NCBI GenBank assembly: GCA_017538255.1
Contig: JAFYJD010000028.1
Coordinates: 1 to 56,143, forward strand
Length of the DNA stretch: 56,143 bases
Reading direction: 5' to 3'
Origin: Clostridia bacterium
Lineage (GTDB): Bacteria; Bacillota; Clostridia; Christensenellales; CAG-138
Both the position numbers and the translations under genes were made by a program. How positions within the stretch are numbered: the first letter of the stretch is position 1; the number at the start of each line of letters is the position of its first letter. The notes under the pieces are model-generated. The model was not told the DNA's origin and did no database searches. It was given only the letters and a program-made list of their open reading frames with translations. Shown here one piece after another: positions 2 to 23,838 of the stretch.

Positions 2-145
2 GAGAAGCTCGGCGAAGAAGGAATAAAAGCGACGATCCTCGTTCCCAAGCACAAGGACTGGAACGAGGATCTTTTATGTTTAAGCCAAGATGAAGGCGAG
101 GAAAGAAGCGAGGTGGAAAGCCCATGTCAGGCATTCCAATCCTGA
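2..145 (+). CDS. 3' end of an ICE toprim-type (DUF3991-like) protein, partial
   Basis: An open frame enters from the left edge and stops at the TGA at 143-145. The visible 47 residues contain a VPKHKDWNEDL stretch, then an acidic tail. This kind of ending is, from memory, typical of the toprim/DUF3991 proteins encoded just upstream of the coupling protein in Clostridia conjugative elements. It overlaps the start of the coupling-protein gene by 22 nt, which suggests one operon with coupled translation. The catalytic domain is outside the window, so the family assignment is an inference from the tail and the context. Confidence 0.5.
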   Translation, partial: EKLGEEGIKATILVPKHKDWNEDLLCLSQDEGEERSEVESPCQAFQS

Positions 146-1312
146 TCATCGTCGGAGCTCTTATGTTCGCCGTGCTCGGCGGGATAACCCTGCTTGCGTA
201 TGTTTACAGCCTTAACAGCATTAAGTCCAGGACCGTTGGCGACGGTCAGCACGGCACGGCCCGATGGATGACTAAGGGGGAACAGAAGAGGGTTTATAGT
301 CATATTCCTTTCACGCCCGATAAATGGCGTGAGCAGGCGAAGAATGGGAACGCGCCCACCGGTGAGGACGGCAAGCCTCTGCCGCAAGGCATAGTCGTCG
401 GCTGCAAAGGCAATACCACGGCGATGGTCGATACGGGCGATGTCCATGTCCTTATGATCGGAGCGGCAGGCGTCGGCAAGACCGCATTTTGGCTTTACCC
501 CTGCATAGAGTACGCCTGCGCAAGCGGAATGAGCTTTCTCTCCAGCGATACCAAAGGCGATGTTATGCGAAACTACGGCAATATCGCAAAGGGCTATGGC
601 TACAATGTATCCGTAATCGATTTGCGAAATCCCACACGCTCAAACGGAAACAATCTTCTGCATCTCGTCAATAAGTATATGGATCTTTATCAGGCGCATC
701 CCGATATGCTCGTGTATAAGGCAAAGGCGGAAAAATACGCCAAGATCATTTCAAAGACGATCATCCTCTCCGGCATGGATGCCGCCTCCTTCGGACAGAA
801 CGCCTATTTCTACGACGCCGCGGAAGGTCTGTTGACGGCAACGATACTGCTCGTTGCCGAGTTCTGTAAGAAGGAGGAAAGGCACATAGTATCGGTATTC
901 AAGATAATTCAGGAACTTCTTGCTCCATCCGGCAAGAAGGGCAAGAATCAGTTCCAACAGCTCATGGAGCTGCTTCCGAACGACCATAAAGCCAAATGGT
1001 TTGCAGGTGCGGCGTTGAATACCGCAGAGCAGAGCATGGCTTCGGTTATGTCCACGGCACTTTCAAGGCTCAATGCCTTCCTCGATTCGGAGCTTGAACA
1101 GCTTCTCTGCTTCGATACCGAGATAGACGCCGAGCAGTTCTGTCGTGAGAAATCGGCGATATTCATAATCATGCCGGAGGAGAACCCCAACACATTCTTT
1201 ATGATCTCGCTTATAATCCAACAGCTCTATCGCGAGATACTCGCCGTTGCGGATGAAAACGGCGGCCAGCTCAAGAATCGCTGTGTTTTCTTCTGCGATG
1301 AATTCGGAACGC
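124..1312 (+). CDS. traG: Type IV secretion coupling protein TraG/VirD4, exon 1 (N-terminal 396 residues)
   Basis: Coupling ATPase of a conjugative type IV secretion system. It would link the relaxase-DNA complex to the membrane channel. There is one strong hydrophobic segment at residues 4-28. Walker A (GAAGVGKT) is at 113-120 and the Walker B core FFCDEFG is at 389-395. The reading frame is cut right after the Walker B block by a group II intron. Without splicing, translation would read into the intron and stop at 1360-1362, giving a 412-residue protein with a foreign 16-residue tail. Joining base 1312 to base 4063 restores DEFGTLPKIES, the usual continuation of this family, giving about 643 residues in total. 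Function therefore depends on RNA splicing. Confidence 0.88.
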
Positions 1313-2046
1313 GTGCGACATGTTCGCAACTGAAAAGGTTGCGTGCAAGGCAAAGAAAGTGAGGTGAAAAAACAGCCTTGCAAACTGATATTCCGAAAGG
1401 TGGAATGAGAGGGTAACGCCTTGAAACGCCTTCCTTAAAACTGCGACAGGCGGCAGCCGTGCAATAGGTTTGCTGTCTGAGAGCTCGTGAAGTCGGCAGA
1501 AGTCTGCCCAAACATGGCAATGAATTGCTGAATGTGGAAACCGGCTTGGAGGCAAGCTGTGCAGATGATATGCCGGAGGTCTATAAAATATCTATGGTGA
1601 GAATGTCATTATGACTGACGAAACCCCGAATGAACGGCTCTATACGAATGGGCGGCAGAAATGCCGTTGCCGCCTTGCGGGCGGTGTATGTGAGGATGAG
1701 TAAAACTGTGTACTATGAAAATCCTTATATCGTTACAGGCGATATCAAGCATACAGGGTCAAAGGGAAGCTTAAGGATATATGTACAGATAGGAATATCG
1801 GAACATGGAAAGGTCGGAACATGGAGCGAATTGCATCGCTGTGAAATGTTGTCAGGGAAAGTCACTGATATAACCTGACTTAATCCGGCTGAGAGCGATG
1901 TCACAGTACCTGTGAAGCGGTGATAACAAGCCGTGGAGGGATAGACATCAGTCGTCTTGTATGTTTAAAGTAAGTATCAATAATTTCATAGGTTCGAGTA
2001 AGACTAAGAAAGGCTTATCTCTAATAAAATGGAGGAACAGCCGACT

Positions 2047-3918
2047 ATGACAACAGCAAAGAAACCCAAAAAGCAAAAGCTGAGAAACGCGGAATACTAC
2101 GATCTGCAAGAAGCTTTTGACAAGCTGTATTTGGACAGCCTGAAAGGGAAAGGCTTCACAAAGCTAATGCCCATGATCCTGTCCGAAAACAACATTCGTC
2201 TTGCATATCGCAATCTCAAAAAGAACAGCGGAAGCAGGACAGCGGGAACTGACAAAAAGACCATAAAAGACTTTGAAGCATGGAATGAACAGGATTTTGT
2301 CAAATACGTCCGCAGACGGTTGGAATGGTATGTTCCACAGCCTGTGCGCAGGGTTGAAATACCCAAAGAAAGCGGAAAGACACGTCCACTTGGTATTCCT
2401 ACAATTTCCGATCGGCTTATACAGCAATGCTTTCTGCAAGTGCTGGAACCTATATGCGAAGCGAAGTTTCATGACAGAAGCTTTGGTTTTAGACCAAACA
2501 GAAGTCAGGAAAACGCCATGGCTGCAGCATATTCCTTGGCTCAGCGGCAGCATCTGTATTATGTTGTCGACCTTGATATTAAGGGGTTTTTCGACAATGT
2601 AAACCATGGAAAGCTGCTGAAACAGATGTGGATGATCGGAATAAGAGATAAACAGGTAATATCCATCATATCGGCAATGCTTAAGGCGGAGGTCGCCGGA
2701 ATAGGATTTCCGGAAAAAGGGACTCCTCAGGGCGGAATTATCTCCCCTTTACTATCAAACATAGTGCTGAATGAACTGGATTGGTGGATCTCAAGCCAAT
2801 GGGAAACAATTCCAATGCAAAATGATTATGCTCATATCAGAAGTGATAATGGCGTCATTGACAAGGGATATGTCTATCATGTTCTCCGAACACAGACAAA
2901 CCTCAAGGAATGCTATGGTCTCAGGTATGCCGATGATTTCAAAATATTCTGCCGCGAAAAAGCCGATGCCGAAAAGCTGTTTATTGCCACTCAAAATTGG
3001 CTGAAGGAGCGATTGGGGCTTGAAATAAGTCCTGAAAAATCCCGAATAGTCGATTTGCGAAAGCAGTATTCGGATTTTCTCGGTTTTAAGATGAAAGTCA
3101 AGCAAAACGGCAGGAAAAACGGAAGAATACGGTATACCGTTGTCTCCCACATTTCGGACAAGCGGAAACAGCGAATCAAAAATCGCGCCGCCGATATGAT
3201 CGGGAGGATCAAGTTCCCCGCAAATGAAAATGAAGAACACAAATACGTAATGGACTATAATTCATTTGTATTAGGTGTTCATAACTATTACCGTATAGCA
3301 ACACATGTAAGTAAGGACTTTGCGGAAATAGGCTTTTCAGTCAAAAGAACTATGAAATGCAGATTGGGACAAAGGTTAAAGAGAAACGGAAATACTCTGC
3401 CCGAATATGTGAGGGCAAGGTATGGAAAGAGCAATCAGATGCGATATATTCGCGGCTTGTTCATTCTGCCGATTGCTTATGTTCAGACAGTCGCACCCAA
3501 GCATAGACCAAGAAATTGGAGTATCTACACGGCAGAAGGACGTGCGAGCGTACACAGATCACTTGAAGTGGTGAATATGTCGATTCTTCGCTATCTTATG
3601 GAAAACCCCGTAAGAGGTGAAAGCATTGAATACAACGATAATAGGCTTGCTCTCTATTGCGCACAACACGGAAATTGCGCGATAACGGGAAAACCGCTGA
3701 CTATCGGAAGCATTCACTGCCATCATAAGACGAGGAAAAAGGACGGCGGGGACGACAGATACACTAATCTCATACTGATATGCCAAGATGCTCATATACT
3801 CATTCACGCCGTGGATAGAGATACAATAATGATCTATTGCGAAAGACTAAAATTGAACGCCAAGCAAAAGGACAAGCTTAACAGACTGCGAAAGCTCTTA
3901 AACCTTAGTCCTGTCTGA
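2047..3918 (+). CDS. ltrA: Group II intron-encoded reverse transcriptase/maturase with HNH endonuclease
   Basis: Multifunctional intron-encoded protein for splicing (maturase), DNA cleavage and target-primed reverse transcription. The RT core holds GTPQGGIISPLL and the catalytic YADD, about residue 294 from this start. A maturase (X) domain follows. The C-terminal HNH endonuclease has the pattern C-x3-G, then HCHHK, GGDDRYTNL and HILIH. The ATG at 2047 is preferred over the in-frame ATG at 2029 because GGAGGAA at 2031-2037 gives a well-spaced ribosome site. At about 623 residues it has full length for the family, with no frameshift, so the element is probably active. Confidence 0.92.
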   Translation: MTTAKKPKKQKLRNAEYYDLQEAFDKLYLDSLKGKGFTKLMPMILSENNIRLAYRNLKKNSGSRTAGTDKKTIKDFEAWNEQDFVKYVRRRLEWYVPQPVRRVEIPKESGKTRPLGIPTISDRLIQQCFLQVLEPICEAKFHDRSFGFRPNRSQENAMAAAYSLAQRQHLYYVVDLDIKGFFDNVNHGKLLKQMWMIGIRDKQVISIISAMLKAEVAGIGFPEKGTPQGGIISPLLSNIVLNELDWWISSQWETIPMQNDYAHIRSDNGVIDKGYVYHVLRTQTNLKECYGLRYADDFKIFCREKADAEKLFIATQNWLKERLGLEISPEKSRIVDLRKQYSDFLGFKMKVKQNGRKNGRIRYTVVSHISDKRKQRIKNRAADMIGRIKFPANENEEHKYVMDYNSFVLGVHNYYRIATHVSKDFAEIGFSVKRTMKCRLGQRLKRNGNTLPEYVRARYGKSNQMRYIRGLFILPIAYVQTVAPKHRPRNWSIYTAEGRASVHRSLEVVNMSILRYLMENPVRGESIEYNDNRLALYCAQHGNCAITGKPLTIGSIHCHHKTRKKDGGDDRYTNLILICQDAHILIHAVDRDTIMIYCERLKLNAKQKDKLNRLRKLLNLSPV

Positions 3919-3979
3919 GTATAACAACCGCTATGTTGTTGAAATTGATACGTTTATATTGGATATACAAGACGATGGA

Positions 3980-4013
3980 ACGCCGGATGAGCGGAAACGC
4001 TCATGTCCGGTGT
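3980..4013 (+). ncRNA. Group II intron domain V
   Basis: This folds by eye into the canonical 34-nt domain V: an 8-bp lower stem, a 2-nt bulge (TG), a 6-bp upper stem and a GAAA tetraloop. The triad position reads CGC instead of the more common AGC. CGC is also the triad of the Oceanobacillus iheyensis intron, so this is a permitted variant. Domain VI follows up to 4062. Confidence 0.85.
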
Positions 4014-4062
4014 GGAGTGGGGGAAAATCCGGAGATCACATCAAACGATTACCTATCACTAT

Positions 4063-4805
4063 TGCCTAAGATAGAGTCCGCCGAAATGATGTTCAGCGCG
4101 GCGCGCTCAAGGCGCTTGCAGATAGTGCCGATAATCCAGTCCTTCGCTCAGCTTGAAAAGAACTACGGCAAGGAAGGCGGCGAGATAATCGTGGATAACA
4201 CGCAGATAACCCTGTTCGGCGGCTTTGCTCCAAACAGCTCATCCGCGGAAACTCTGTCAAAGGCGCTCGGAAGCCGCACCGTTATGTCAGGCTCGGTATC
4301 AAGGAGCAAGAACGATCCTTCCGCATCCCTGCAGATGATGGAAAGACCGCTGCTCACGCCCGATGAGCTCAAATCCCTGCCGAAGGGCGACTTCGTAGTT
4401 ATGAAAACCGGCGTTCACCCTATGCGCGTACACCTCAAGCTCTTCTTCAAATGGGGCATAGAGTTCGATAAGGACAACCCATACACCGTTGAGGAAAACG
4501 GCAACCGTGAGGTCAAATACGCGAGCAAGGAAGAACTGACGGAAGCCATTCTCAAAAAGTATCATCCGGATGCGAAGCGTGCAGGAGATACCCCAAGCGA
4601 CGAATATAAGCCCACAGGCGAAGAAAACAGCGGAGAGAATAACGCGCCCACAGAAAAACCGCCGGCAAAAAACAGACAGCCCAAACCGCTTCCTGATTCG
4701 ACCGAAAAGGCCGTAAAGAAAGACGACGCCCCGCCATGGATGAACACAGCAAGCGAAGCGCAGAATAATACACATACGGAGGAAGAAACCGATGGGCAGG
4801 CTTGA
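4063..4805 (+). CDS. traG: Type IV secretion coupling protein TraG/VirD4, exon 2 (C-terminal part)
   Basis: The continuation of the coupling protein begins at the second base of the Leu codon after DEFGT. It encodes LPKIESAEMMFSAARSRR and the QSFAQLEKNYG stretch typical of the C-terminal half of the VirD4 ATPase. A low-complexity hydrophilic tail rich in Pro, Lys, Glu and Asn follows from about 4570. Unspliced, this part has no good start of its own. The stop overlaps the start of the next gene by 14 nt. No base change in the ATPase core suggests decay. Confidence 0.86.
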
Positions 4806-5503: not shown

Positions 5504-6031
5504 CTAATACCTCCAGTTATTCATTATGCTGTTTAATATCTTTTCATAGCTGTTTGCCGAATATGTTGAATAAGTAATGCGGAACGCTTCCAGCATTTCT
5601 ATGACTTTCTGCTGTATTTGATCGCTTTGTTCTTCACTTTGGTAACGTCCGTCTTCCCTATATGGGAATGACCTGGTTAGAAGAAAATTCAGATTATTAA
5701 ATGAGTTGTGTGCATCAATAACAGCAGCCATAAAATGGTCTGATAGGTAGTCCCGATCATTATAAACAGCCGACAATAAAAGTGGACTGTCCACGATAAC
5801 AATATCAAACTGTTCGGCGCATTGTTCAATTCTCCACAGCTGGTTTCCGAATACAAACGCTTGATTATACGGGGGCTTTATACCTGTGTATAAGAACAAA
5901 TCTTTAGTAAACTCTTGCACCATTTCAACATTATACCCGAGTTTTTTTAATGCGGAATAACAGTATGCTGCACAAGTGCTTTTCCCATTCCCCGGGGCTC
6001 CGAAGAAGTTCACGATGAGTGATTTGTTCAT
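5504..6031 (-). CDS. Small P-loop nucleotide kinase-like protein
   Basis: A 175-residue P-loop protein. Walker A is GAPGNGKST (residues 10-18), and a hydrophobic strand ending in a Walker B-like VIVDSPLLL stretch follows near residue 80. Length and layout resemble nucleoside/nucleotide monophosphate kinases of the small AAA type common in phages and accessory islands. It would phosphorylate a (deoxy)nucleotide or a similar small molecule. It is the last gene of a four-gene operon with two deaminase-fold proteins and a radical SAM enzyme, 45 nt behind the latter. The substrate cannot be read from the sequence. Confidence 0.65.
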   Translation of the reverse strand: MNKSLIVNFFGAPGNGKSTCAAYCYSALKKLGYNVEMVQEFTKDLFLYTGIKPPYNQAFVFGNQLWRIEQCAEQFDIVIVDSPLLLSAVYNDRDYLSDHFMAAVIDAHNSFNNLNFLLTRSFPYREDGRYQSEEQSDQIQQKVIEMLEAFRITYSTYSANSYEKILNSIMNNWRY

Positions 6032-6076
6032 AGCATTATTTCTCCATCTTTAGTGGTGTTTTTCAAGGTACGACTA

Positions 6077-7447
6077 TTAGTCGCCCAAATCTACGGTAAA
6101 CGGGAGTTCGGAACGATTACACAAAGCGAGATCGCTTAAGAACTCAGAGTATGTGTATCCGGGTTCAAAGTACGAAATCGATTTTATATCATAAAAGTCC
6201 CTTTGATTAGCAATTAGCTTCGGTATCTCCAATGCGATTTGGCTGGCAGTTTCTCTATCGATCTGCTCGCTCAGATTCAAATTGACAAATCCGTTTTCCG
6301 CAACACTCTCGCCACCAGGTATTGACGCACCAAAATGCTGTAATTCCAGAATAGAATCCATGTTGTAATAATAAACCAAGCTACTAACTGATACGTCTTT
6401 AATTAATTCTTTTCTTTCAACCAGCCATTTAATAGTTTCATCAATAGTTTTAATAGTCTCTCCGGCATAAAGTAGCAAGTTAAACTTTACCCATACATTA
6501 TATTTTGCGCAAGTCAACAATAACTTTTCTGCCATCGACAAGTATTTCTTCGGATCCTTTGTTTTGTGCATATTGATCAACTGCTGATGACTCGCGCTTT
6601 CCAAGCCGATATCAAGAACCTTTAAACCGGACATGCTCATCACCTCAATCATATCAAGAGGAACAGTTTCGACACGTGAAGTACATCTCCACAAAACTTG
6701 CCGCTTTCTAGATTGAAGACTATTGCATAGGCGTTGAGTCCACTCGCGTTCAAAAACAAAATGGGGAGCCTCAAAATACACAGAGTAATCACCATAAAAA
6801 CTATCGAGTTTATCCAACTCTGAAAGAATTGTTTTCACCGGTTTGTTGCGAAGCCGCTTATTGTCCTTATCGGCACAGAATTGACAACCGGAACCACATC
6901 CTCTGGACACTTCTATGCAAGGCTGATACTTATGGTAATCATACAGCAGCTGGTAATCAAACCAATCAAAGCATTTAGTCTTGCCATCAGGAATCGATTC
7001 CCAATCCCTAAACCTAAAGTACTCCGCCAGTTTCCGCTCTCCAAATCCTTCTATGATAGTATCTGCATAAATCAGTTGGTCTTTTACCCACTCAACATGA
7101 TTGTCTACAACCCAACGCCCTCCAACTATTATCGGCTTATTGTATCTTTGTTTTGCAGCTCTACAAAACCTTACGCTCCAAGACATTGAATAGTAACTAG
7201 GAATTGAAAGCAAAAAACATTCGCAATCATATAAAAGATTTATGCCTGAATCCTCTATAATAGCAAAGAGTTCTTCAACGGAATATGAATCTGCCTGATA
7301 CACAACAACATCCAAGTTGCCATTATGCTTTAGAATTGTAGCAAGCCCAAGCAATCCATAGTTGAGATAACGAATTCTCTTGCGAATTAATATATCGGCT
7401 TTTTTCGTTGCATCATGTCCTGCAGAAATCGCGATTATTTTTTTCAT
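6077..7447 (-). CDS. Radical SAM enzyme with cobalamin-binding-like N-terminal domain
   Basis: A B12-type radical SAM protein of about 456 residues from this start. The N-terminal 150 residues look like a Rossmann cobalamin-binding domain (GLLGLATILKHNG, LLSIPS, IIVGG). The radical SAM cluster motif is C-G-S-G-C-Q-F-C, i.e. CxxxCxxC, at about residues 184-191. Later features include a DIGLESAS motif near the SAM site. Enzymes of this layout (BchE, OxsB, P-methyltransferases) do methylations or ring rearrangements; the substrate is unknown here. The ATG at 7447 is chosen because it lies 4 nt behind the upstream stop with GGTGA before it. The neighbours suggest a nucleotide substrate, which is inference. 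Confidence 0.75.
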   Translation of the reverse strand: MKKIIAISAGHDATKKADILIRKRIRYLNYGLLGLATILKHNGNLDVVVYQADSYSVEELFAIIEDSGINLLYDCECFLLSIPSYYSMSWSVRFCRAAKQRYNKPIIVGGRWVVDNHVEWVKDQLIYADTIIEGFGERKLAEYFRFRDWESIPDGKTKCFDWFDYQLLYDYHKYQPCIEVSRGCGSGCQFCADKDNKRLRNKPVKTILSELDKLDSFYGDYSVYFEAPHFVFEREWTQRLCNSLQSRKRQVLWRCTSRVETVPLDMIEVMSMSGLKVLDIGLESASHQQLINMHKTKDPKKYLSMAEKLLLTCAKYNVWVKFNLLLYAGETIKTIDETIKWLVERKELIKDVSVSSLVYYYNMDSILELQHFGASIPGGESVAENGFVNLNLSEQIDRETASQIALEIPKLIANQRDFYDIKSISYFEPGYTYSEFLSDLALCNRSELPFTVDLGD

Positions 7448-7451
7448 ATCG

Positions 7452-8252
7452 TCACCGTCTTTTTCCATTTGCGGTATCATTCGCAATTAATCCTATCAAA
7501 CATGTGCCTGCTGGAAAAATGTATTTACTCCATTCAGAGTTATCCGAAGGCGTAAACCAGCGGTTGATTGCGAAAAAAGCAGCACCAACTATGCCAAAAA
7601 ACATGCTGTATTTTATAAACATTTTATTTGTGAAAAGCTTTTTGACGAAGCTTTTTCGTGCGTAATCAGTTCTGTTTTTATTAAAAGCCTCAGAATACTT
7701 TTCTTTAAATTGTCTTTTTAACAGCTTGGGATTATTTACCCACTGATTATTATTCAGCCATTTTTCATATCGATTATCTGAATCCATTTTTGCAACCTTG
7801 TCTTTATGACTCGGAGGCGTAGCAAGTACTGCTTCATGTATAGGGGTTGACAGATAGTAGAACACCAAAGAAACAAGACGATCACCAACACCAATAGTTA
7901 TGTCGGAATCCGTCATATTATGCAGAACTATTAGTGATTGACCACAATACTCAGGATCCAGCATTGTTCCGATATGCCCTAAACCCCTTTTGGCTAAGGA
8001 CACTCTTGAGTGATAAGTGCCACCAATTCTTTTTGTTACATAAATAGCCTCATTTGTTAGAATGCACGCAGTTTGATGCGGGGGTATATTAATATTCTTT
8101 TCATCCTTATCTGTCAGATTGCCGCCTTTTGCATTCCAAGCAAATTTGCTGGCTGTCAAATCGATCGAGTTGTCCCTAAAGTTATCGATGCTCAATGGGC
8201 AAACAAAGATATTCTTCCCCATCTCCTTGTAGATATCCTCAATACTTAACAT
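7452..8252 (-). CDS. Membrane-anchored dCTP deaminase/dUTPase-fold protein
   Basis: 266 residues. Residues 1-145 follow the dCTP deaminase/dUTPase fold. The signature SRVSLAKRGLGHIGTMLDP (82-100) and CGQSLIVL match the SSLxRxGL and PGxxGxxTLE regions of Dcd. In a by-eye alignment with the neighbouring deaminase, the catalytic Glu position is a Val (about 109), so deaminase activity is doubtful. A charged linker is followed by two hydrophobic segments at about 212-232 and 244-258, which would anchor it to the membrane. It lies 18 nt behind the intact deaminase. Possible roles are nucleotide sensing or pyrophosphatase activity. Confidence 0.7.
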   Translation of the reverse strand: MLSIEDIYKEMGKNIFVCPLSIDNFRDNSIDLTASKFAWNAKGGNLTDKDEKNINIPPHQTACILTNEAIYVTKRIGGTYHSRVSLAKRGLGHIGTMLDPEYCGQSLIVLHNMTDSDITIGVGDRLVSLVFYYLSTPIHEAVLATPPSHKDKVAKMDSDNRYEKWLNNNQWVNNPKLLKRQFKEKYSEAFNKNRTDYARKSFVKKLFTNKMFIKYSMFFGIVGAAFFAINRWFTPSDNSEWSKYIFPAGTCLIGLIANDTANGKRR

Positions 8253-8270
8253 TTGTCTACCTCCGATTGT

Positions 8271-8795
8271 TTATATCTCTTTGAAAAGTTTACTGGGTTC
8301 TGCCTCTGTACTGTACTGGTATTTGTCGCTATTGCAAAGGGCAATATCCCCGTCGACCGTATTATAATAGATTTGACATACGGAGATATACGGATAAACT
8401 ATTATCGGCTGTACACATGAGAGCTCCAATGTCCAGTGTCCGTCAAATCCCGCTTCACCTAGCCCGGCGGTGATATGTACAAACAAGCCTAACCTAGCAA
8501 GGGAAGACCGTCCTTCAATTTTGGGAATGAACTTCGTAGTCAACGTCCTCTCAACTGTTGATGCAAGATATAGTTTTCCAGGCTGCAGCAAAAAGCCTTC
8601 ATTGGGGATGAACAACTCGGTCATATCATTCGCATCATACTTCTTTTTCATATCAAGCGTAGAAGTATTATACACAAGTAGCCGCTCAGATAATGAGAGG
8701 TTATAGCTGTTTGAATTAAGCTTTGACTCATCGAACGGCGAGATAAAGATTGAATTATTCAGTTCGCTGAGTATTCTGTTCTTAGATAAAATCAT
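8271..8795 (-). CDS. dcd: dCTP deaminase (Dcd family)
   Basis: Converts dCTP to dUTP, or is a bifunctional relative releasing dUMP. The core motif GRSSLARLGL and the following AGFDGHWTLEL are classic Dcd signatures, and the catalytic Glu in TLEL is present. Length (about 174 residues) is normal. The ATG at 8795 is preferred over 8804 because AAGGA lies 9 nt before it. It is the first gene of a four-gene operon and AT-richer than the chromosomal genes around. A Dcd next to another Dcd-fold protein, a kinase and a radical SAM enzyme is not the usual housekeeping context; phage-defence deaminases are a known precedent. Confidence 0.85.
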   Translation of the reverse strand: MILSKNRILSELNNSIFISPFDESKLNSNSYNLSLSERLLVYNTSTLDMKKKYDANDMTELFIPNEGFLLQPGKLYLASTVERTLTTKFIPKIEGRSSLARLGLFVHITAGLGEAGFDGHWTLELSCVQPIIVYPYISVCQIYYNTVDGDIALCNSDKYQYSTEAEPSKLFKEI

Positions 8796-8897
8796 ATAGG
8801 ACATTCCTTATTATAGTATGATTATTATGGTTCAAAGTATCTACGCACATAATTGTGCTATTCTCGGTTGGATTTGTAAATGCAGCTGTTTTATGGA
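8796..8897 (-). promoter_or_regulatory. Promoter region of the deaminase operon
   Basis: A short AT-rich spacer that must hold the promoter of the minus-strand operon. It contains an imperfect palindrome GCACATAATTGTGC (8845-8858), possibly an operator. A TATAAT on the minus strand (8810-8815) abuts the ribosome site and is too close to be a normal -10. The exact start cannot be placed. Confidence 0.35.
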
Positions 8898-9563
8898 CTA
8901 TCCCTCCAGCTTTCCATCGCGCATTTTCAGCACCACATCGGCTTCATCGGCTACGGCTTGATCGTGTGTCACAATAACAACGCAGCAGTTTTCTTCGTGG
9001 GCAAGGCGTTTCAGTATTTCCACGATATTCCTGCCGTTTTCGCTGTCGAGGTTGCCCGTCGGCTCGTCCGCAAGAATGATCCTGCTGCCGGATGCAAGCG
9101 CCCTTGCTATCGCCACGCGCTGCTGTTCGCCGCCGGAGAGCATATTGGGCAGGCGGTCAAACTGCTCCTCTTTCAATCCTACCGCAAGCAGTTTTTCCCT
9201 TGCTTTTGCTTCCGCCTCGTTCTTCTTCATACCGCGCATATATAGCGGATATGCTGCATTTTCAAGCACGGTCAAATGCTGAAACAGATTGAAGTTCTGA
9301 TAGATCACCGAAGCGCTTTCGCGTCTGTAACGGTCGCGATCCATTTTTGCGGTGGATTCGCCCTTCCATTCGATGCTTCCGCTTTCCGGCACGTCAAGCC
9401 CCGCCAGCAGAGAAAGGAAGGTTGTTTTTCCGCAGCCGGACGAGCCGACGATGGTGTACATCTTGCCCGGCTCAAATTCGACGCTCACGCCGCCCAGTGC
9501 GCGGACGGTCTGATACTTGTTGCGATAGCTGTATGTTATGTCCTTTACAAGCAGGCTTTCCAT
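8898..9563 (-). CDS. ABC transporter ATP-binding protein (MacB/LolD type)
   Basis: 221-residue ATPase. Walker A is GSSGCGKTT (residues 40-48), the signature is [16 protein letters not shown], and Walker B is [12 protein letters not shown] followed by the H-loop VTHD. The [13 protein letters not shown] form is typical of ATPases that partner FtsX-like permeases. It starts 3 nt after the stop of the small permease, so the three genes are one transcription unit. It should power the two permeases upstream, either for export of the secreted peptides or for removal of a toxic compound from the membrane. It is the last gene of the sigma-controlled cluster. Confidence 0.92.
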
Positions 9564-9566
9564 GTT

Positions 9567-10715
9567 TTATTCCTCCGTTTTCATAAGTTTCATTACATTG
9601 ATTCGCGTGATACGGGAAACGGAAATCGCCGTCCCGATTAAAAACGCGGAGATCGCTCCTGCCGCATACAGCAGCATACGAAGCGAGAGAGTTCCGTTTA
9701 TCACGATTCCGATGACGGTTCCGACGGCGGCGCCCACGACCGCAAGCGCAAGATACTCGCCGAACGTCAAGCGGAAGATTTTTCCGCGTGTCATGCCGAG
9801 ACAGCGCATGACTGCGTACTCGCGCAGGCGCGACTGTGTGGAGAGGTATGCCGCAAAGAATCCGACCGCTCCCTCAATTATGAGCAGCGCGGGGATCAGC
9901 AAATGCAGCGTTCGGATATTTCCCCGTATTTCTTCCAATGTGTTGCGAAGAATATCGTCATTTATACGAACGGCAAATGCGGGGCGAATGCCCGATTGGT
10001 CATCGGCGTTCAGATCCGCAAAAACTTCGTAGAGCGACGCCTTTGCCTCATCAAGACGGCGTGTATCCCTGATGTCGAAGGAGCAGGAATCCGCCGTAAT
10101 CATATAGCTTTGCCCGTCATGGAAGTCCATTGTGTGAAAGGGGCAATACAGGGTCTTCGCCGAACCCGTATGCGTTCCGATAATCCGCAAACTCACGGAA
10201 AAATTGCCGTTGTCGATTTCTATGTACTCGCCGTCAACAGCAAGCCCCTGCGGGATTACGCACACTTCCTGATTGCCCGCAAACACGGAAGCATCCCATC
10301 CGTCAAACAAAATCATGCTTCCGCCTCCGGCCGCTGTCAACGCATAGTCGGAATCGGGAGTTAAAAGGCATACCATCGTGTATTCTTTCGGCGCGATCAG
10401 CTTGATGCTCGCCTTTGAGCGCACATTTTTGATATGCTCGTCCTGATAGTAACCTCTCTCATGCCGCAGCCCGCACAGCAAATCCACAAAGCCCGTCGCC
10501 ATGTGCAGATTGTCCTGATTTGTGCCCTGTGAATCTGTGATAACGCAGGAGATCACAGTATCATCTACCGTTTTCTCAAGCGCCGCCTCCTGCCTCGCGG
10601 TAAGCGAACACAGCACCATAGCGGCGCAGGTTTCAAGCAAAGCGATGAACAGCAGCAGGAGCGTCCATCGTTTGCGCCTCATCATTGCGGAGATCGTGAC
10701 ATGCCGCATGCTCAT
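9567..10715 (-). CDS. FtsX/MacB-like ABC permease (short type)
   Basis: About 382 residues from the ATG at 10715 (MSMRHVTIS), placed 2 nt behind the stop of the larger permease. Layout: a TM segment near the N-terminus after MMRRKRW, a large extracytoplasmic domain of some 240 residues, then three C-terminal TM segments with the charged loop MRCLGMTRGKIFRLTFGE. This is the MacB/FtsX architecture. Together with the larger permease and the ATPase it should form a heterodimeric complex. A 25-codon remnant of a second copy survives at 13446-13523. Confidence 0.85.
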   Translation of the reverse strand: MSMRHVTISAMMRRKRWTLLLLFIALLETCAAMVLCSLTARQEAALEKTVDDTVISCVITDSQGTNQDNLHMATGFVDLLCGLRHERGYYQDEHIKNVRSKASIKLIAPKEYTMVCLLTPDSDYALTAAGGGSMILFDGWDASVFAGNQEVCVIPQGLAVDGEYIEIDNGNFSVSLRIIGTHTGSAKTLYCPFHTMDFHDGQSYMITADSCSFDIRDTRRLDEAKASLYEVFADLNADDQSGIRPAFAVRINDDILRNTLEEIRGNIRTLHLLIPALLIIEGAVGFFAAYLSTQSRLREYAVMRCLGMTRGKIFRLTFGEYLALAVVGAAVGTVIGIVINGTLSLRMLLYAAGAISAFLIGTAISVSRITRINVMKLMKTEE

Positions 10716-10717
10716 TT

Positions 10718-12697
10718 CTATTTCAATCCCTTCTTTTCGGTTTGCAATAACGGTACGTTGGACAGCGCCTTTGCGCACAGCAGCGAAATCATCGCCAGCA
10801 GCAGGAACGCTGCGGCAGCGCAGGCGGCGATAACGGGATAATCGGGCGCAAGCGCAGTTGATACCGCTTTCTCCGTAACGGTGGAGAACAGCGCAGCGGC
10901 AAGTCCCGCTCCAAGCAGGGCGGCAATGGCATCGATCAAAATGAAGGCTCCAACTGCCTGCTTCGCCACAACCTTGCGGTCGATGCCGAGTATGCGCATG
11001 GTTTTAGCGGACGGGGCAAAGCGCCGCATCGTGAGAAAATGCGCAAGCGCAGCGGTTATGATAAACGCGGCAATACCGATCCATAAAAGCATCTGCCCGT
11101 TTTCAACCAAGGCGTCAATGCTTACCTCAGTTGCGCTGAAGTTCTGATCAAAGCAAATATAAGCATCCTTATAGCCTTCCTGTTCCATATAGGAAAGAAA
11201 GCTTTCCTTTGTTCCGTTCTTCAAAATCAGCGATGTCACCAGCCGATCTTTTGGATTCGTTTCAAACGATTCGCTGCCGGAAACGGATTTCTTGGGTATC
11301 AGGATCGTATCTGCGCAAATCATTTGGATTCCCTTTGAAAACTCCGGCGCGGAATAGATACCGACAATCTCATATTCTTCCGTCACGCCTAATCGATCCT
11401 CCGGCAGACAAGGGCCGCGAGGGATGGTGTCGCTGCTCCAATAACCGGTATCATAGAAGTCCATCTCAAGCTTGTCCCCGATCTTGTAGCCGTTATACTG
11501 CGCGTATGCCGCGCTTATCATACAGACCTTTTTGCCTGCGTAGTCTGAACTGTCAAAGAAGCGTCCTTCCAATAGAGCCGCCACACCCGTGTTAAAAATA
11601 TACATACTTTGCACATTGTCGGAGAGTATCACCGTTGCGCTGCTTTGGTTGACATTGCAAAGCGGTATAATATCTTCACGCCATACCATGCATTCATCGC
11701 TCGCAAGGAAGTCCTCCAGCGAGCCGTTGTACTCCGCCCAGCGAGGAAGCATCTCTTCATCGGGATAGTAATACGGCGTTCCATCTTCCATATATCCACG
11801 CTCCACCTGAAGCGCCTTGTCATAAAACTCACCAATTTTACCGGTCATCTCGCTTGGATCGGTAAAAGTAATGTTTCCGCCGCGATCAAGATGTAGATAT
11901 ATTCTCGCGTAATCCAAGAAAAGGATGCTGCGTCCGTTATCCAAAAGTCGGCCTTGCGTTATACTGGTCTGAGTGCTCATCGTAATAACCGTATAATCCC
12001 TATAAAAACCATAGATCAGATAGGTTTTCCCTTCTTGAAAAGGTATTTCGCCTTCAGCCGTAAACAGACTCCCTTTTATAGTTATTGTTGCCGGAACGGG
12101 TACGGATGCTTTAGCGGTTTCATGTACATGTCCTGGAACATAAGCGATTAGCTCGGAGTCATCATAAATATCAGGGTAACCGTCTGCAAGGGAAACGACG
12201 TCAACGATCTCGGCTTCCATATCATAACCGGCGATGATTTCGCCCATCGGAGTTAATGTTTCTCCATCTTTGACGGATTTGCATTTGACAGCAAAAACAG
12301 TCATATTATAGCAGGGGGAATCAAACTCCGTATCATAATCCAGCAAATCCCGACAGCCCGAAATGATCGCCTTGCTTCCCTTGACCTCCGCACCGAGAAT
12401 ATAACGGTAATCCACGGACTGAACGAATCCGCTGTTTATTGCTGCCTCATGTACTGCGAACGGATCATATTCCCTCTCTGTAAAAGTACCGTTTTCAAGC
12501 TCCTCTCCTGTGGGAGTCCTATAATCCGGAAGAACAGCTATGGTAACATAATCGTTGGAAACCTGTGCGGCTTGGCGAAACGTCCAGCAAAGCATAGCCG
12601 CTCCAAGCACGGTCAAAGACACCGCAAGCAACAAAAGCAGAGAAAGCAGTATAGGAAACAAGGGTCTTTTTTTATGTAAAGCAGAAAATGTTTTCAT
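10718..12697 (-). CDS. Large FtsX/MacB-like ABC permease, copy A
   Basis: 659 residues. The N-terminal TM segment follows KKRPLFPILLSLLLLL. A very large extracytoplasmic domain of about 480 residues contains the NQSSATVI and AYAQYNGYKIGDKL stretches. Three C-terminal TM segments are separated by the loop RRFAPSAKTMRILGIDRKV. It is a close paralogue of the protein at 13526-15502. The last 535 bp of the two genes are nearly identical, while the extracellular parts differ clearly. It lies 78 nt behind the secreted Cys-rich protein A and 2 nt before the short permease. Confidence 0.85.
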   Translation of the reverse strand: MKTFSALHKKRPLFPILLSLLLLLAVSLTVLGAAMLCWTFRQAAQVSNDYVTIAVLPDYRTPTGEELENGTFTEREYDPFAVHEAAINSGFVQSVDYRYILGAEVKGSKAIISGCRDLLDYDTEFDSPCYNMTVFAVKCKSVKDGETLTPMGEIIAGYDMEAEIVDVVSLADGYPDIYDDSELIAYVPGHVHETAKASVPVPATITIKGSLFTAEGEIPFQEGKTYLIYGFYRDYTVITMSTQTSITQGRLLDNGRSILFLDYARIYLHLDRGGNITFTDPSEMTGKIGEFYDKALQVERGYMEDGTPYYYPDEEMLPRWAEYNGSLEDFLASDECMVWREDIIPLCNVNQSSATVILSDNVQSMYIFNTGVAALLEGRFFDSSDYAGKKVCMISAAYAQYNGYKIGDKLEMDFYDTGYWSSDTIPRGPCLPEDRLGVTEEYEIVGIYSAPEFSKGIQMICADTILIPKKSVSGSESFETNPKDRLVTSLILKNGTKESFLSYMEQEGYKDAYICFDQNFSATEVSIDALVENGQMLLWIGIAAFIITAALAHFLTMRRFAPSAKTMRILGIDRKVVAKQAVGAFILIDAIAALLGAGLAAALFSTVTEKAVSTALAPDYPVIAACAAAAFLLLAMISLLCAKALSNVPLLQTEKKGLK

Positions 12698-12775
12698 CTA
12701 TTTGCTCCTATTCCTTTATAGGGTATCTTTTGCGAAGCGCCTGTGGAAACAGACGCCCCGCAATATGGTCAATGA

Positions 12776-13192
12776 TCAAACCGGAAGATACGGACATGCG
12801 CCAGTATGAGGTCCTGCAGGGCACTTCACGCGCTTATACCCATAACCGTTGCAAGTCAAACAGGTGCCATAATGCTTCTGCCAAGTTCCATCGCATGAAG
12901 CCGAATAAACAGAAATTCTGTCATGAAGCACAGGAGCTCCGTATGAATTCCAAGTAAGGAGAGCGCCGCACTCCTTACATTTGACGCTGTTCACATATAC
13001 CATCTTATGATTGGTATCATCATGGTGTACATAAGTGTTGAGAGGTTTGGTAACAATGTCTTGTGGACGGATCACATGCGTATGCCCTTTAGGTTCATCC
13101 ACATGCTCATCACTTACTGCAGCAAATGCCTGCAAGGGGAGTACTGCAATGCAGAGCACTGCGACAAGTAAAAGAGAAACGAACTTTTTCAT
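12776..13192 (-). CDS. Secreted Cys/His-rich protein A
   Basis: 138 residues. A typical signal peptide (MKKF, hydrophobic core, AFA-A cleavage site around residues 24-25) is followed by a His-rich stretch. The C-terminal domain has seven Cys: CKEC, SC, CLTC, KC and AC. It ends in CPxGPHxGxCxYLPV. The same Cys pattern and ending are in paralogue B (15581-16045). The spacing recalls a zinc ribbon, but function is unknown. GGAGG lies 6 nt before the ATG. It follows a leader with a five-codon ORF and precedes permease A. It might be a peptide exported or sensed by this transporter, or an envelope-stress protein. Confidence 0.75.
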   Translation of the reverse strand: MKKFVSLLLVAVLCIAVLPLQAFAAVSDEHVDEPKGHTHVIRPQDIVTKPLNTYVHHDDTNHKMVYVNSVKCKECGALLTWNSYGAPVLHDRISVYSASCDGTWQKHYGTCLTCNGYGYKRVKCPAGPHTGACPYLPV

Positions 13193-13340
13193 AGAATACC
13201 TCCGTCATATTCTTTTGTGAGATAAGGTTTTACTCAAGGTCACTTCTGCAATACTGCTTTACCGGAAGACAATCATAGGCTTCACCTCCATCTGACCGTT
13301 GTGTTATAAACGCAACCTATTCAATAAACCACAATAGGTT
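13193..13340 (-). promoter_or_regulatory. Leader of unit A with five-codon ORF and inverted repeat
   Basis: On the minus strand, GGAGGTG precedes ATG ATT GTC TTC CGG TAA (13259-13276), a potential five-residue leader peptide (MIVFR) 66 nt before the secreted protein. Upstream an inverted repeat AACCTATT/AATAGGTT (13314-13340, 11-nt spacer) and a TATAAC may form a promoter/operator. The whole leader is repeated almost unchanged before unit B. The mini-ORF differs there only by a synonymous TTC/TTT change. Confidence 0.5.
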
Positions 13341-13445
13341 ACAGTGCCGTGGTGAATAAGGACACTTTTCGTCCTTCTACTATATACAACGCCTCCCACA
13401 AGGGAACAGGTTACAAACTTTGCAAAATATATCATCGCAAGTTTT

Positions 13446-13523
13446 TCACCGGCAAGAATGAGCGTTGTGCGCAGCGGCAGCTGTCAACACATAGTCGGAT
13501 AGAGTGACATGCCGCATGCTCAT
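13446..13523 (-). pseudogene. Remnant of a second short permease gene
   Basis: Starts MSMRHVT exactly like the short permease (10715), 3 nt behind the stop of permease copy B. It then jumps to SDYVLTAA, which matches an internal piece of the short permease (SDYALTAA near 10350). It ends after 25 codons. Most of the gene has been deleted, so the duplicated unit has no short permease of its own. Confidence 0.8.
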
Positions 13524-14038
13524 TTCTATTTCAATCCCTTCTTTTCGGTTTGCAATAACGGTACGTTGGACAGCGCCTTTGCGCACAGCAGCGAAATCAT
13601 CGCCAGCAGCAGGAACGCCGCGGCAGCGCAGGCGGCGATAACGGGATAATCGGGCGCAAGCGCAGTTGATACCGCTTTCTCCGTAACGGTTGAAAACAGC
13701 GCAGCGGCAAGTCCCGCTCCAAGCAGGGCGGCAATGGCATCGATCAAAATGAAGGCTCCAAATGCCTGCTTCGCCACAACCTTGCGGTCGATGCCGAGTA
13801 TGCGCATGGTTTTGGCGGACGGGGCAAAGCGCCGCATCGTGAGAAAATGCGCAAGCGCAGCGGTTATGATAAATGCGGCAATGCCAATCCATAAAAGCAT
13901 CCGTCCGTTTTTAACCAAGGCGTCAACGCTTACCTCGGCCGCACCGAAGTTCTGGTCAAAGCAAATATAAGCATCCTTATAGCCTTCCTGTTCCATGTAG
14001 GAAAGAAAGCTTTCCTTTGTTCCGTTCTTCAAAATCAG
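13504..14038. repeat. 535-bp direct repeat, copy 2 (copy 1 at 10696-11230)
   Basis: Near-identical to 10696-11230, at a constant offset of 2808 with only scattered substitutions. It covers the 3' part of the large permease gene and the first codons of the short permease. Outside it the two genes differ much more, as expected from gene conversion or a recent recombination limited to the membrane domain. Confidence 0.85.
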
Positions 14039-15502
14039 TGAGGTGATCAATCTGTTGCTTGGACGCGTGCTAAACTCCTCGCTGCCCGAAACAGCTTTTT
14101 TAGGTATAAGAATCGTATCCGCACAGAACAATTGCTCACCTTGTGAAAACTCAGGCGCGGAATAAATGCCCACTATTTCATATTCACCTGTTACGTTCAT
14201 ACGATCCTCTTTAAGACATGATCCGCGCGGTATGGTCTCACTTGCAAAGAATCCGGTATCGTAGAAATCCAACGTAAGCTTATCTCCGATCTTATAACCG
14301 TTGTACTGAGCGTAAGCCGCGCTTATCATACAGACCGACCTTCCCGCATAGTCCTCATCGTTGAAGAAGCGCCCCTCAAGCAAACCCGCTACTCCGGTAT
14401 TGAAGGCATACATGCTTCGCACATTGTCGGTAACGATCACCGTTGCGCTGCTTTGATTGACCTTGCACAGAGGTATGATCTCCTCGCGCCATATCCTGCC
14501 TTCGTCGCTTGCAAGAAAGTCCTCCCAAGAACCGCTGTATTCTGCCCAGCGTGGAAGCATTTCCTCATTCGGATAGAGGTATGGCATTCCATCTTCCGTA
14601 TAATCGCGCTTTACTTGCATCGCATCGTCACCGGCCTTCTCGAAATCGGAAATTGCAGTGCCGGGGAGCTTTATAAATCTTCTCGTTTCATCAAGGAGGC
14701 TGAACTGTCGTCCGTAATCCAGTATTCTGCCTGTAATTACCGATGTCTGCGTTTTAATGGTGTCCACAGGATAATCATGATAGAATCCGTAGACAAGATA
14801 TGTATGCCCTTGCTTAAACGGGATATCCCCATCGGGTGTAAACAGCGTTCCGTATATACGCATCGTTGCCGGAACAGGAACAGTAGCTTCGACTTCATGA
14901 ACTTCTATACCATGTTCATGTGTATCGATCAGCGCAGTATTATCATATATGTCGAGATAGCCGTCCGCGAGAGAAATGACATCGATAATCTCCGTTTCAG
15001 CAAAATAATAGGCTGAGGAACCTGTATCAACGGGAGTGCCATCTTCGCCGTCTTCATCAAAACTTGGCATCTCACTTTTTATGCATTTGACCGCGAAAAC
15101 GGCCATGTTGTAGCAGGGTTCGTCAAAATCAGCATTATAATCCAACACATCCTTGTATCCGGATGTTATCGCTTTGCTTCCCTTGACCTCCGCTCCAATG
15201 ATATATCTGTAATCAACGTCCTGCACAAAGCCGCTGTTCATTGCCGCTTCATTCACCAAATAGTATGGGATAATAGGAGTCTCCTCGGCTAAACCGTTTT
15301 CCATTTCCTCATGCGTATATGTCCTTCTGTCGTTTGGAACGGCAATGGTAACGTATTCATCGTTGATCCCTTCGCTCTGCCTATGTGCGCTCGCCATCAT
15401 GGTCGCTCCGATCACATTCAAGGAAACCGCAAGCAGCAAAATCAGAGAAATCAAAACAGGGAACAACGGTCTTCTTTTATATACTGCAAAGAACGCTTTC
15501 AT
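13526..15502 (-). CDS. Large FtsX/MacB-like ABC permease, copy B
   Basis: About 658 residues from the ATG at 15502, chosen because GGGAG lies just upstream and MKAFFAVYKRRPLFPV aligns with copy A. An in-frame upstream extension exists but lacks homology. Architecture is as in copy A: one N-terminal TM, a large extracytoplasmic domain, three C-terminal TM segments. The extracytoplasmic domain has diverged from copy A, with small insertions such as an acidic PSFDEDGEDG stretch. The C-terminal part is almost identical. It may pair with the same short permease and ATPase, giving a transporter with alternative recognition domains. Confidence 0.85.
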   Translation of the reverse strand: MKAFFAVYKRRPLFPVLISLILLLAVSLNVIGATMMASAHRQSEGINDEYVTIAVPNDRRTYTHEEMENGLAEETPIIPYYLVNEAAMNSGFVQDVDYRYIIGAEVKGSKAITSGYKDVLDYNADFDEPCYNMAVFAVKCIKSEMPSFDEDGEDGTPVDTGSSAYYFAETEIIDVISLADGYLDIYDNTALIDTHEHGIEVHEVEATVPVPATMRIYGTLFTPDGDIPFKQGHTYLVYGFYHDYPVDTIKTQTSVITGRILDYGRQFSLLDETRRFIKLPGTAISDFEKAGDDAMQVKRDYTEDGMPYLYPNEEMLPRWAEYSGSWEDFLASDEGRIWREEIIPLCKVNQSSATVIVTDNVRSMYAFNTGVAGLLEGRFFNDEDYAGRSVCMISAAYAQYNGYKIGDKLTLDFYDTGFFASETIPRGSCLKEDRMNVTGEYEIVGIYSAPEFSQGEQLFCADTILIPKKAVSGSEEFSTRPSNRLITSLILKNGTKESFLSYMEQEGYKDAYICFDQNFGAAEVSVDALVKNGRMLLWIGIAAFIITAALAHFLTMRRFAPSAKTMRILGIDRKVVAKQAFGAFILIDAIAALLGAGLAAALFSTVTEKAVSTALAPDYPVIAACAAAAFLLLAMISLLCAKALSNVPLLQTEKKGLK

Positions 15503-15580
15503 TGATATCACTCCCGTCATGTTGTTTGTTTCATTTGCGGAACGCTCGCAAAACAAGCGCCCCGCAAAGCTCATAAGTAA

Positions 15581-23707: not shown

Positions 23708-23838
23708 AAAAGCCGGCCGTGCCCCGTCTGGTACGCCCACAGGGCGGACGGGGCTCGGCTTCGACTCCCTTCCTTCATTCTGCCAAATAAACAGGGGGGC
23801 AAGCCCCCCCTGTTTATTTGGTGCCGGTGGTGGGAGTC
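23708..23838. repeat. 131-bp direct repeat, copy 2, running into the intact tRNA-Leu
   Basis: Second copy, ending inside the T-arm of the intact tRNA. The long hairpin (23783-23821) begins at the tRNA CCA end and may act as a processing or termination structure for it. The two copies are separated by 60 bp. Confidence 0.9.

What the first reader, a model, noticed from the sequence alone, without database searches (positions are those of the whole stretch)
5504..8897. Possible new nucleotide-based system: Dcd, membrane Dcd-like protein, B12-type radical SAM enzyme and P-loop kinase in one operon
Four minus-strand genes with gaps of 18, 4 and 45 nt, visibly AT-richer than the genes around them and directly beside a conjugative element. 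Seen: an intact Dcd motif, a second Dcd-fold protein with two TM segments, CxxxCxxC radical SAM with a cobalamin-like N-terminal domain, and a Walker A kinase-like protein. Known: dCTP deaminases can defend against phage by depleting dCTP, and the cobalamin radical SAM enzyme OxsB rearranges deoxyadenylates. Inference: the operon could make a modified (deoxy)nucleotide or act as a defence module, with the membrane protein as sensor or anchor. I know no named system with this set.
Basis: partly seen in the sequence, partly recalled or inferred. Interest (0 to 1): 0.78.

Follow-up and report, generated by a model that had tools for sequence, protein, structure and literature searches.

The report
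Mobile Dcd–radical-SAM–kinase nucleotide defence cassette
A bacterium carries, beside a conjugative-transfer gene, a four-gene set whose kinds of gene recur in shuffled order in another bacterium and whose radical-enzyme relatives sit among anti-virus genes on plasmids; it likely makes an altered DNA building block that would poison virus replication, which would be a new chemical form of bacterial immunity.

Summary
In detail: four minus-strand genes (5504-8804; gaps 18, 4, 45 nt), the most AT-rich stretch of the window, beside a conjugative coupling-protein gene. They encode a Dcd-family protein with the catalytic Glu; a second Dcd/dUTPase-fold protein (mDcd) without that Glu but with the dUTPase-type Asp and predicted membrane helices; a B12-type radical SAM enzyme; and an AAA_28 kinase-like protein. 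In genome G1201 (same class) thymidylate kinase, Dcd, radical SAM (broken) and mDcd are consecutive in another order. 23 of 68 mDcd clusters share an exact contig length with a listed radical SAM cluster (shifted control mean 0.4). Distant radical SAM relatives lie near thymidylate kinase, dGTPase/HD or AAA_28 kinase genes (11 of 27 loci; controls 1 of 52), on two plasmids among Gabija and Qat-like, or Lamassu and Septu, genes. The host has its own Dcd and Tmk. Best reading: a nucleotide-based defence cassette, probably making a modified pyrimidine deoxynucleotide that poisons phage DNA synthesis ('a viperin for DNA'). Mechanism inferred; product and phenotype unknown. Closest: PADLOC candidate PDC-M51, viperins, Clover/dGTPases and the thmA-C 4'-thiothymidine cluster.

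The parts
8271..8804 (-). Dcd, dCTP deaminase family, 177 aa; Glu127 at the place of E. coli Dcd Glu138
   Evidence: Pfam DCD E 2.2e-33; TIGR02274 95.0 bits against cut-off 92.8; PDB stretch with query 127 opposite chain residue 138 (position); 62% identical (106/170) to the Dcd of L106
7452..8252 (-). mDcd: Dcd/dUTPase-fold domain (1-~139) plus helical linker and predicted C-terminal membrane helices, 266 aa
   Evidence: Pfam DCD and dUTPase; model pLDDT 90.8, best PDB match a dUTPase-dUMP complex 8y1w, TMt 0.84; no Glu in the deaminase-Glu column in 40 of 40; Asp99 in 38 of 40, His81/Ser82/His93/Asn112 in 40 of 40
6077..7447 (-). B12-type (class B architecture) radical SAM enzyme, 456 aa from ATG at 7447
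5504..6031 (-). P-loop nucleotide-kinase-like protein, AAA_28, 175 aa, Walker A GAPGNGKS
   Evidence: PF13521 E 1.9e-11; PHROG thymidylate kinase E 3.8e-12; 34 homologues incl. itself
8805..8897 (-). 93-nt upstream region between the ABC transporter gene and dcd; one promoter-like site -8880..8852, scan not above chance
124..1362 (+). T4SS coupling protein (conjugative transfer), N-terminal part; reading resumes at 3933-4805 after a group II intron-type RT ORF (2029-3918)
   Evidence: PF02534 E 7.4e-18, RVT_1 E 1.4e-39; continuation at 3933-4805 read by eye

Best explanation
The window carries an AT-rich, same-strand four-gene cassette beside a conjugative-transfer gene (a Dcd-family protein, a Dcd/dUTPase-fold protein with predicted membrane helices, a B12-type radical SAM enzyme and a P-loop nucleotide-kinase-like protein) that likely works as anti-phage defence by making a modified pyrimidine deoxynucleotide that would poison phage DNA synthesis. 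Proposed route, every step inferred: (1) Dcd turns dCTP into dUTP, draining dCTP; (2) mDcd, which lacks the deaminase Glu but keeps a dUTPase-like site, binds or hydrolyses dUTP at the membrane and may be the regulator that senses pool changes of infection; (3) the radical SAM enzyme rewrites the sugar or base of a dUMP/dTMP-type nucleotide; (4) the dedicated kinase (thymidylate kinase in related loci) re-phosphorylates the product; (5) the analogue triphosphate is incorporated or blocks polymerase. Shown: genes, motifs, predicted folds, recurrence of the set with shuffled order, partner enzymes of the relatives, defence-island placement of some relatives, and separate Dcd and Tmk copies in the host. 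Not shown: substrate, product, B12 dependence, any phage phenotype.
For: Same four kinds of gene consecutive in L106 (tmk 7424-8059, dcd 8088-8606, radical SAM 8641-10037 broken, mDcd 10037-10930). 23 of 68 mDcd clusters (window included) share exact longest-contig length with one of 120 listed radical SAM clusters; shifted control mean 0.41, max 5 in 2000. Distant radical SAM relatives: thymidylate kinase in 7 of 27, HD/dGTPase in 5 of 27, AAA_28 kinase in 1 of 27, any of these in 11 of 27, against 1 of 52 control radical SAM loci; the five plasmid relatives opened each have an adjacent kinase gene (four tmk, one AAA_17/18; the Nostoc one is not found by the seeds). Islands: Rhizobium plasmid GajA (1137 bits) and QatC-like, with dGTPase; Sphingomonas plasmid LmuA/LmuB and PtuA/PtuB; Burkholderia plasmid PDC-M30A/B; Nostoc DrmMI/DpdE/DruE-like; Pseudomonas sp. 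A-1 between HsdR and a type I specificity subunit. mDcd relatives pair with dUTPase on Priestia and Peribacillus plasmids, the latter next to SIR2 PDC-S25. Sporadic: at E up to 1e-30, besides G000, 0 of 296, 0 of 390 and 0 of 397 further genomes in order, class and phylum samples. Host has its own Dcd-like and Tmk genes.
Against: No biochemical or phage data. Near the window's cassette I identified a conjugation gene but no known defence system (only the cassette itself was scanned with PADLOC). 16 of 27 distant relatives show none of the tested nucleotide partners, and three clostridial ones (L019, L020, L022) lie among genes that look like housekeeping ones. The window kinase is AAA_28, not Tmk, and its homologues share no contig length with mDcd or listed radical SAM clusters, so in this exact form it is a looser member. 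The B12 domain is below Pfam cut-off. PADLOC gives only E 3.9e-4 for the radical SAM protein, and the L009 relative has no PDC-M51A hit at E up to 0.01. A similar gene logic (radical SAM + kinase + triphosphatase) makes an antibiotic in Photorhabdus (PMC12691670).
Confidence: 0.5

Rival explanations
1. It is a small nucleoside-antibiotic cluster: the radical SAM enzyme and kinase make a thymidine-like analogue that is released against competitors, and Dcd/mDcd supply precursor or hydrolyse the analogue triphosphate for self-protection.
For: thmA-C of Photorhabdus (radical SAM, AbmG-like nucleoside kinase, nucleoside triphosphatase) makes 4'-thiothymidine and the triphosphatase gives self-resistance; B12 was in the expression medium (PMC12691670, sections 7, 12 and 19 read). 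OxsB/OxsA is a B12 radical SAM plus HD pair for oxetanocin (passage in PMC7074753).
Against: Relatives on two plasmids sit between known phage-defence systems, and several lie beside STAND-like NTPases; thymidylate kinase suits activation inside the cell rather than release; I saw no transporter in the set shared by the window and L106. Homology of ThmA to this family could not be tested.
Confidence: 0.2
2. It is a nucleotide-sensing abortive-infection device: Dcd/mDcd sense a changed dNTP pool, the radical SAM/kinase product is a signal, and mDcd opens or damages the membrane as effector.
For: mDcd relatives have C-terminal membrane segments and lack the deaminase Glu; Dcd structures with dTTP exist (titles); Clover uses dTTP and p3diT as signals for a dGTPase (abstract and opening of PMC12265719); an mDcd-like gene stands next to a SIR2 defence candidate on a Peribacillus plasmid.
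Against: None of the 27 genome or 5 plasmid relatives scanned has an mDcd or Dcd gene within 3 kb, so the chemistry does not need this effector; two short helices may be only an anchor.
Confidence: 0.15
3. It makes a modified dNTP for hypermodified DNA of a mobile element, protecting that DNA from restriction, as phages with dU- or hmdU-type DNA do.
For: Dcd plus modifying enzyme plus dedicated kinase is the logic of phage base-modification routes (recalled); location beside a conjugation gene and, for relatives, on plasmids.
Against: Rare in viral contigs: one mDcd and three weak radical SAM matches, none for the kinase in a close-relative scan, no mDcd match in 50,697 phage records; I saw no polymerase gene in the window or L106 set.
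Confidence: 0.1
4. A chance or housekeeping neighbourhood: unrelated nucleotide-salvage genes.
For: 16 of 27 distant radical SAM loci show no tested nucleotide partner.
Against: Shuffled recurrence in L106, contig-length sharing, GC offset, sporadic distribution and second host copies of Dcd and Tmk.
Confidence: 0.05

Closest known systems
PADLOC candidate PDC-M51 (radical SAM PDC-M51A + kinase PDC-M51B)
   Same: Radical SAM protein plus P-loop kinase; some relatives of this family hit PDC-M51A (1.2e-13 for L011, 1.1e-10 for L013) and PDC-M51B (1.1e-13 for the L106 Tmk, 1.8e-11 for the L015 Tmk)
   Different: Window radical SAM only E 3.9e-4 and window kinase no hit to PDC-M51B; other relatives weak (7.9e-5 for L015) or without a hit (L009); Dcd and mDcd are extra. 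No paper with the name PDC-M51 in the held library
Prokaryotic viperins (SAND; ddhNTP makers)
   Same: Radical SAM enzyme proposed to make an antiviral nucleotide analogue; one relative (L013) has a weak pVip hit, E 1.4e-4
Clover and defensive dGTPases / dCTP deaminases (nucleotide-pool defence)
   Same: Target the dNTP pool; related loci contain dGTPase-type HD proteins (PADLOC dGTPase 2e-111 in L012, 1.7e-61 in L096)
   Different: Window Dcd matches no PADLOC model; the extra radical SAM and kinase imply synthesis, not only depletion
thmA-C 4'-thiothymidine cluster; oxetanocin OxsA/OxsB
   Same: Radical SAM + nucleoside kinase + triphosphatase, or B12 radical SAM + HD phosphohydrolase, making nucleoside analogues (4'-thiothymidine enters DNA and inhibits replication)
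   Different: No Dcd or mDcd in the passages I read; homology to ThmA untested; OxsB is a fold relative but not in the profile search list at E up to 0.01

Membership tests
dCTP deaminase (Dcd, TIGR02274) | Family score and catalytic Glu | tested here: met
   95.0 bits against 92.8; Glu127 opposite E. coli residue 138; activity not tested
dCTP deaminase (for mDcd) | Catalytic Glu | tested here: not met
   In an alignment with three Dcd proteins the Glu column holds M 11, V 8, A 7, T 6, I 6, L 1, N 1 in the 40 mDcd sequences; 39.8 bits against cut-off 92.8
dUTPase (for mDcd) | Fold, motif-3 Asp and C-terminal glycine-rich motif V | tested here: inconclusive
   Fold met (8y1w TMt 0.84); Asp99 in 38 of 40; no motif V seen by eye after residue 139 (motifs recalled); catalysis untested
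Radical SAM superfamily | CxxxCxxC and PF04055 | tested here: met
   E 7.3e-11, 43 bits against 29.5; three Cys invariant in 30 of 30
Cobalamin-dependent radical SAM (class B) | N-terminal B12-binding domain | tested here: inconclusive
   PF02310 E 0.039, 14.2 bits against 32.1; 9 of 120 listed relatives carry PF02310; fold aligns over the N-terminal domain with OxsB, TsrM and also AprD4, which by recall binds no cobalamin
Cobalamin-dependent radical SAM (class B) | Cobalamin bound and required | not testable with these tools
   Needs purified protein
PADLOC PDC-M51 | PDC-M51A radical SAM model | tested here: inconclusive
   E 3.9e-4, 17.4 bits
PADLOC PDC-M51 | PDC-M51B kinase model | tested here: not met
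   No hit at E up to 1 for the window kinase; the L106 Tmk hits at 1.1e-13
Prokaryotic viperin | Match to pVip models | tested here: not met
   No hit at E up to 1 for the window protein; relative L013 has E 1.4e-4
Defensive dCTP deaminase (PADLOC) | Match to its models | tested here: not met
   No hit at E up to 1 for Dcd or mDcd
thmA-C 4'-thiothymidine type cluster | ThmA-homologous radical SAM enzyme | not tested
   No Photorhabdus sequence was reached with the tools
Nucleotide-based anti-phage defence | Reduces phage plating | not testable with these tools
   Needs phage challenge

The most novel reading that the evidence does not exclude
A 'viperin for DNA': a B12-family radical SAM enzyme, fed by a private dCTP-to-dUMP route (Dcd plus a membrane dUTPase-like partner) and a private thymidylate-type kinase, makes inside the cell a thymidine-like poison for phage DNA polymerases. 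The clostridial (Dcd/mDcd) and proteobacterial (thymidylate kinase with STAND or dGTPase) loci are two branches of one unrecognised immune family spread by plasmids and conjugative elements.
Probability: 0.37. Interest if true: 0.9.

Novelty: new variant of a known kind. Interest (0 to 1): 0.74.

Why it matters
Known radical SAM immunity is the viperin type, which makes RNA chain terminators; nucleotide-pool immunity, as far as I know it, mostly destroys dNTPs. A system that builds a poisoned deoxynucleotide would join the two, would explain why radical SAM + thymidylate kinase (+ dGTPase or STAND-like) genes sit among Gabija, Lamassu and Septu, and would offer a source of new DNA-targeting nucleoside analogues.

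Tried and rejected
Rejected: chance neighbourhood (see rivals); identity with known defensive dCTP deaminases (no PADLOC hit); phage origin. ARAGORN found only tRNA-Leu at 23819-23905. Promoter and terminator scans were at chance level. E. coli genomes hold no DNA match to the Enterobacter relative. More genome searches gave little: 0 of 180 in another order (no positive control), 1 of 11 in the genus of G1201, that genome itself, 2 of 348 in its family, the second, G1233, being partial and weaker. I looked for relatives of a permease of the ABC transporter to the right, to find an empty site: at E up to 1e-50 one other genome of 60 has one, 31% identical, so the cassette's ends are not mapped.

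Limits of the counts; seeds came partly from the loci counted; L015 and L031 are near-identical; the control set lost one locus (L063, no anchor). One search uses longest-contig lengths only, and 120 of the 346 radical SAM proteins found; 45 of 68 mDcd clusters (27 of the 50 on contigs of 3 kb or more) show no such match. The genome samples overlap in part. The tree leaves out L001 (window copy, present as P0069) and L018, L028, L029, L032 and L033 (split or short frames) and uses 38 of the 120 listed proteins. Neighbour ORFs are longest-frame picks, not gene calls; some in GC-rich loci are spurious. 'STAND-like' rests on a P-loop read in the sequence plus Pfam TPR hits. I chose which island neighbours to scan (19 proteins, of which L096:12169-12741, L096:4809-6461 and L016:4553-7264 had no hit), so these give examples, not a rate.

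Literature: ten searches; in the titles, abstract starts and passages that I saw, no paper describes this gene set. Seen: abstract and opening of PMC12265719; passages of PMC7074753, PMC10250203, PMC10732462, PMC9642334, PMC10853773, PMC12839542 and PMC11084316; abstract, passages and sections 7, 12 and 19 of PMC12691670; the rest only as listings.
Full report
WHAT IS THERE. Four same-strand genes lie at 8804-5504 on the minus strand with gaps of 18, 4 and 45 nt. Their GC (39.1%) is the lowest of any stretch of that length in the window (1 of 529 windows). To the left is a conjugative coupling-protein gene split by a group II intron-type RT ORF (the continuation at 3933-4805 read by eye), to the right an ABC ATPase/permease pair at about 53% GC, and farther right genes that read as chromosomal.

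DO THE GENES BELONG TOGETHER? Of 68 mDcd clusters found in about 5.8 billion proteins, 23, the window included, have a longest contig of exactly the length of one of the 120 listed radical SAM clusters; shifting lengths gives 0.41 on average and at most 5. The kinase's homologues (34) share none, so the kinase type probably varies. Direct evidence for the set comes from genome G1201, another family of the same class: thymidylate kinase (Pfam E 4.6e-34), Dcd (62% identical to the window's), radical SAM (interrupted by stops) and a 297-aa mDcd variant (38% over 136 aa) with a C-terminal hydrophobic segment lie in one run, in an order different from the window's. Shuffled order with kept content argues for function as a set. 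mDcd also occurs without radical SAM: beside dUTPase on Priestia and Peribacillus plasmids and in one viral contig (L088). So two modules, Dcd or dUTPase + mDcd and radical SAM + kinase, are combined here.

THE WIDER RADICAL SAM FAMILY. Relatives at 30-38% identity occur in Proteobacteria and others, and one at 52% (L008, no partner seen, contig end near). Within 3 kb, 7 of 27 have thymidylate kinase, 5 an HD/dGTPase protein (two of these also a thymidylate kinase), 1 an AAA_28 kinase: 11 of 27 with any, against 1 of 52 unrelated radical SAM loci from the same scan; none has Dcd or mDcd (with the caveats under Tried and rejected). The plasmid relatives opened (a second Burkholderia plasmid) show the same: divergent tmk with a roughly 900-aa neighbour, P-loop/TPR-like where examined (Burkholderia, Sphingomonas, Pseudomonas), or with dGTPase (Rhizobium), and an AAA kinase upstream in Nostoc. 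In the tree the thymidylate-kinase loci form a supported group (100/99, with L012 as its dGTPase-only member) and the window's group (100/99) lies apart from it; L008, L013, L014, L019-L023, L030 and L034 show no such partner.

DEFENCE CONTEXT. PADLOC models put several plasmid relatives inside defence islands: GajA on one side and a QatC-like protein on the other (Rhizobium), LmuA/LmuB and PtuA/PtuB (Sphingomonas), PDC-M30A/B (Burkholderia), DrmMI/DpdE/DruE-like proteins (Nostoc); the chromosomal relative of Pseudomonas sp. A-1 lies between HsdR and a type I specificity subunit. The Peribacillus mDcd-dut pair follows a SIR2 protein of candidate PDC-S25. I chose which neighbours to scan, so this is not a rate. 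PADLOC itself lists a radical SAM + kinase candidate, PDC-M51; some relatives match it, the window only weakly.

HOST AND DISTRIBUTION. The host keeps its own Tmk (224 aa) and its own Dcd-like protein (181 aa) elsewhere, so the cassette's enzymes are extra. The radical SAM gene is rare and patchy: at E up to 1e-30 only the window's own genome in samples of 297, 391 and 398 genomes of its order, class and phylum, which overlap in part.

MECHANISM. The partners repeatedly named by the data, Dcd, dUTPase fold, thymidylate kinase, dGTPase, are deoxyuridylate/thymidylate and dNTP-pool enzymes. The simplest common role for a radical SAM enzyme among them is to convert a dUMP/dTMP-type nucleotide into an analogue which the kinase activates. 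Precedents: thmA-C makes 4'-thiothymidine, which enters DNA and inhibits replication, with a triphosphatase for self-resistance (PMC12691670); OxsB/OxsA (passage in PMC7074753); viperins and ddhNTPs (passages in PMC10732462). dTTP is an infection cue in Clover (PMC12265719), and Dcd structures with dTTP exist (titles), so mDcd may sense the pool. The mechanism is inference throughout.

VERDICT. The product and the phenotype are unknown. I file it under no named system; it works most like a viperin-type nucleotide defence aimed at DNA, with a released nucleoside antibiotic as the main rival.

Noticed in passing
window 124-4805: A group II intron-type RT ORF (2029-3918) splits the T4SS coupling-protein gene; reading seems to resume at 3933.
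   Followed up: partly
window 8898-15574: ABC ATPase and FtsX-like permeases with a tandem duplicate (10718-12697 and 13526-15574, 74% identical); close relatives rare in the family sample.
   Followed up: partly
L098 5923-7440 and L099 4348-7401: Priestia and Peribacillus plasmids carry an mDcd-like membrane protein followed by a dUTPase gene, in Peribacillus after a SIR2 protein (PDC-S25): possibly a separate dUTP-centred defence module.
   Followed up: partly
L106 5850-7414: Two proteins without Pfam hit, coiled-coil-like by eye, the second with a hydrophobic segment at 32-50, directly precede the thymidylate kinase of the G1201 operon.
   Followed up: partly
L088 6679-9679: mDcd relative (39% over 233 aa) in a viral contig beside a 412-aa protein without Pfam hit and, by eye, a resolvase-like protein, without a radical SAM match.
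   Followed up: partly
L011 647-1531 and L024 2896-4005: Homologous proteins, hydrophobic near the N-terminus by eye, lie just upstream of two distant radical SAM relatives (in L011 with a P-loop kinase between); the L011 one has no Pfam hit over cut-off.
   Followed up: partly
L010 5629-12628: A radical SAM relative sits inside a type I restriction-modification locus, between hsdR and the specificity subunit.
   Followed up: partly
L096 9536-15912: Downstream of radical SAM/tmk/dGTPase on the Rhizobium plasmid is a QatC-like protein annotated 7-cyano-7-deazaguanine synthase, with an RmrA-like regulator.
   Followed up: partly
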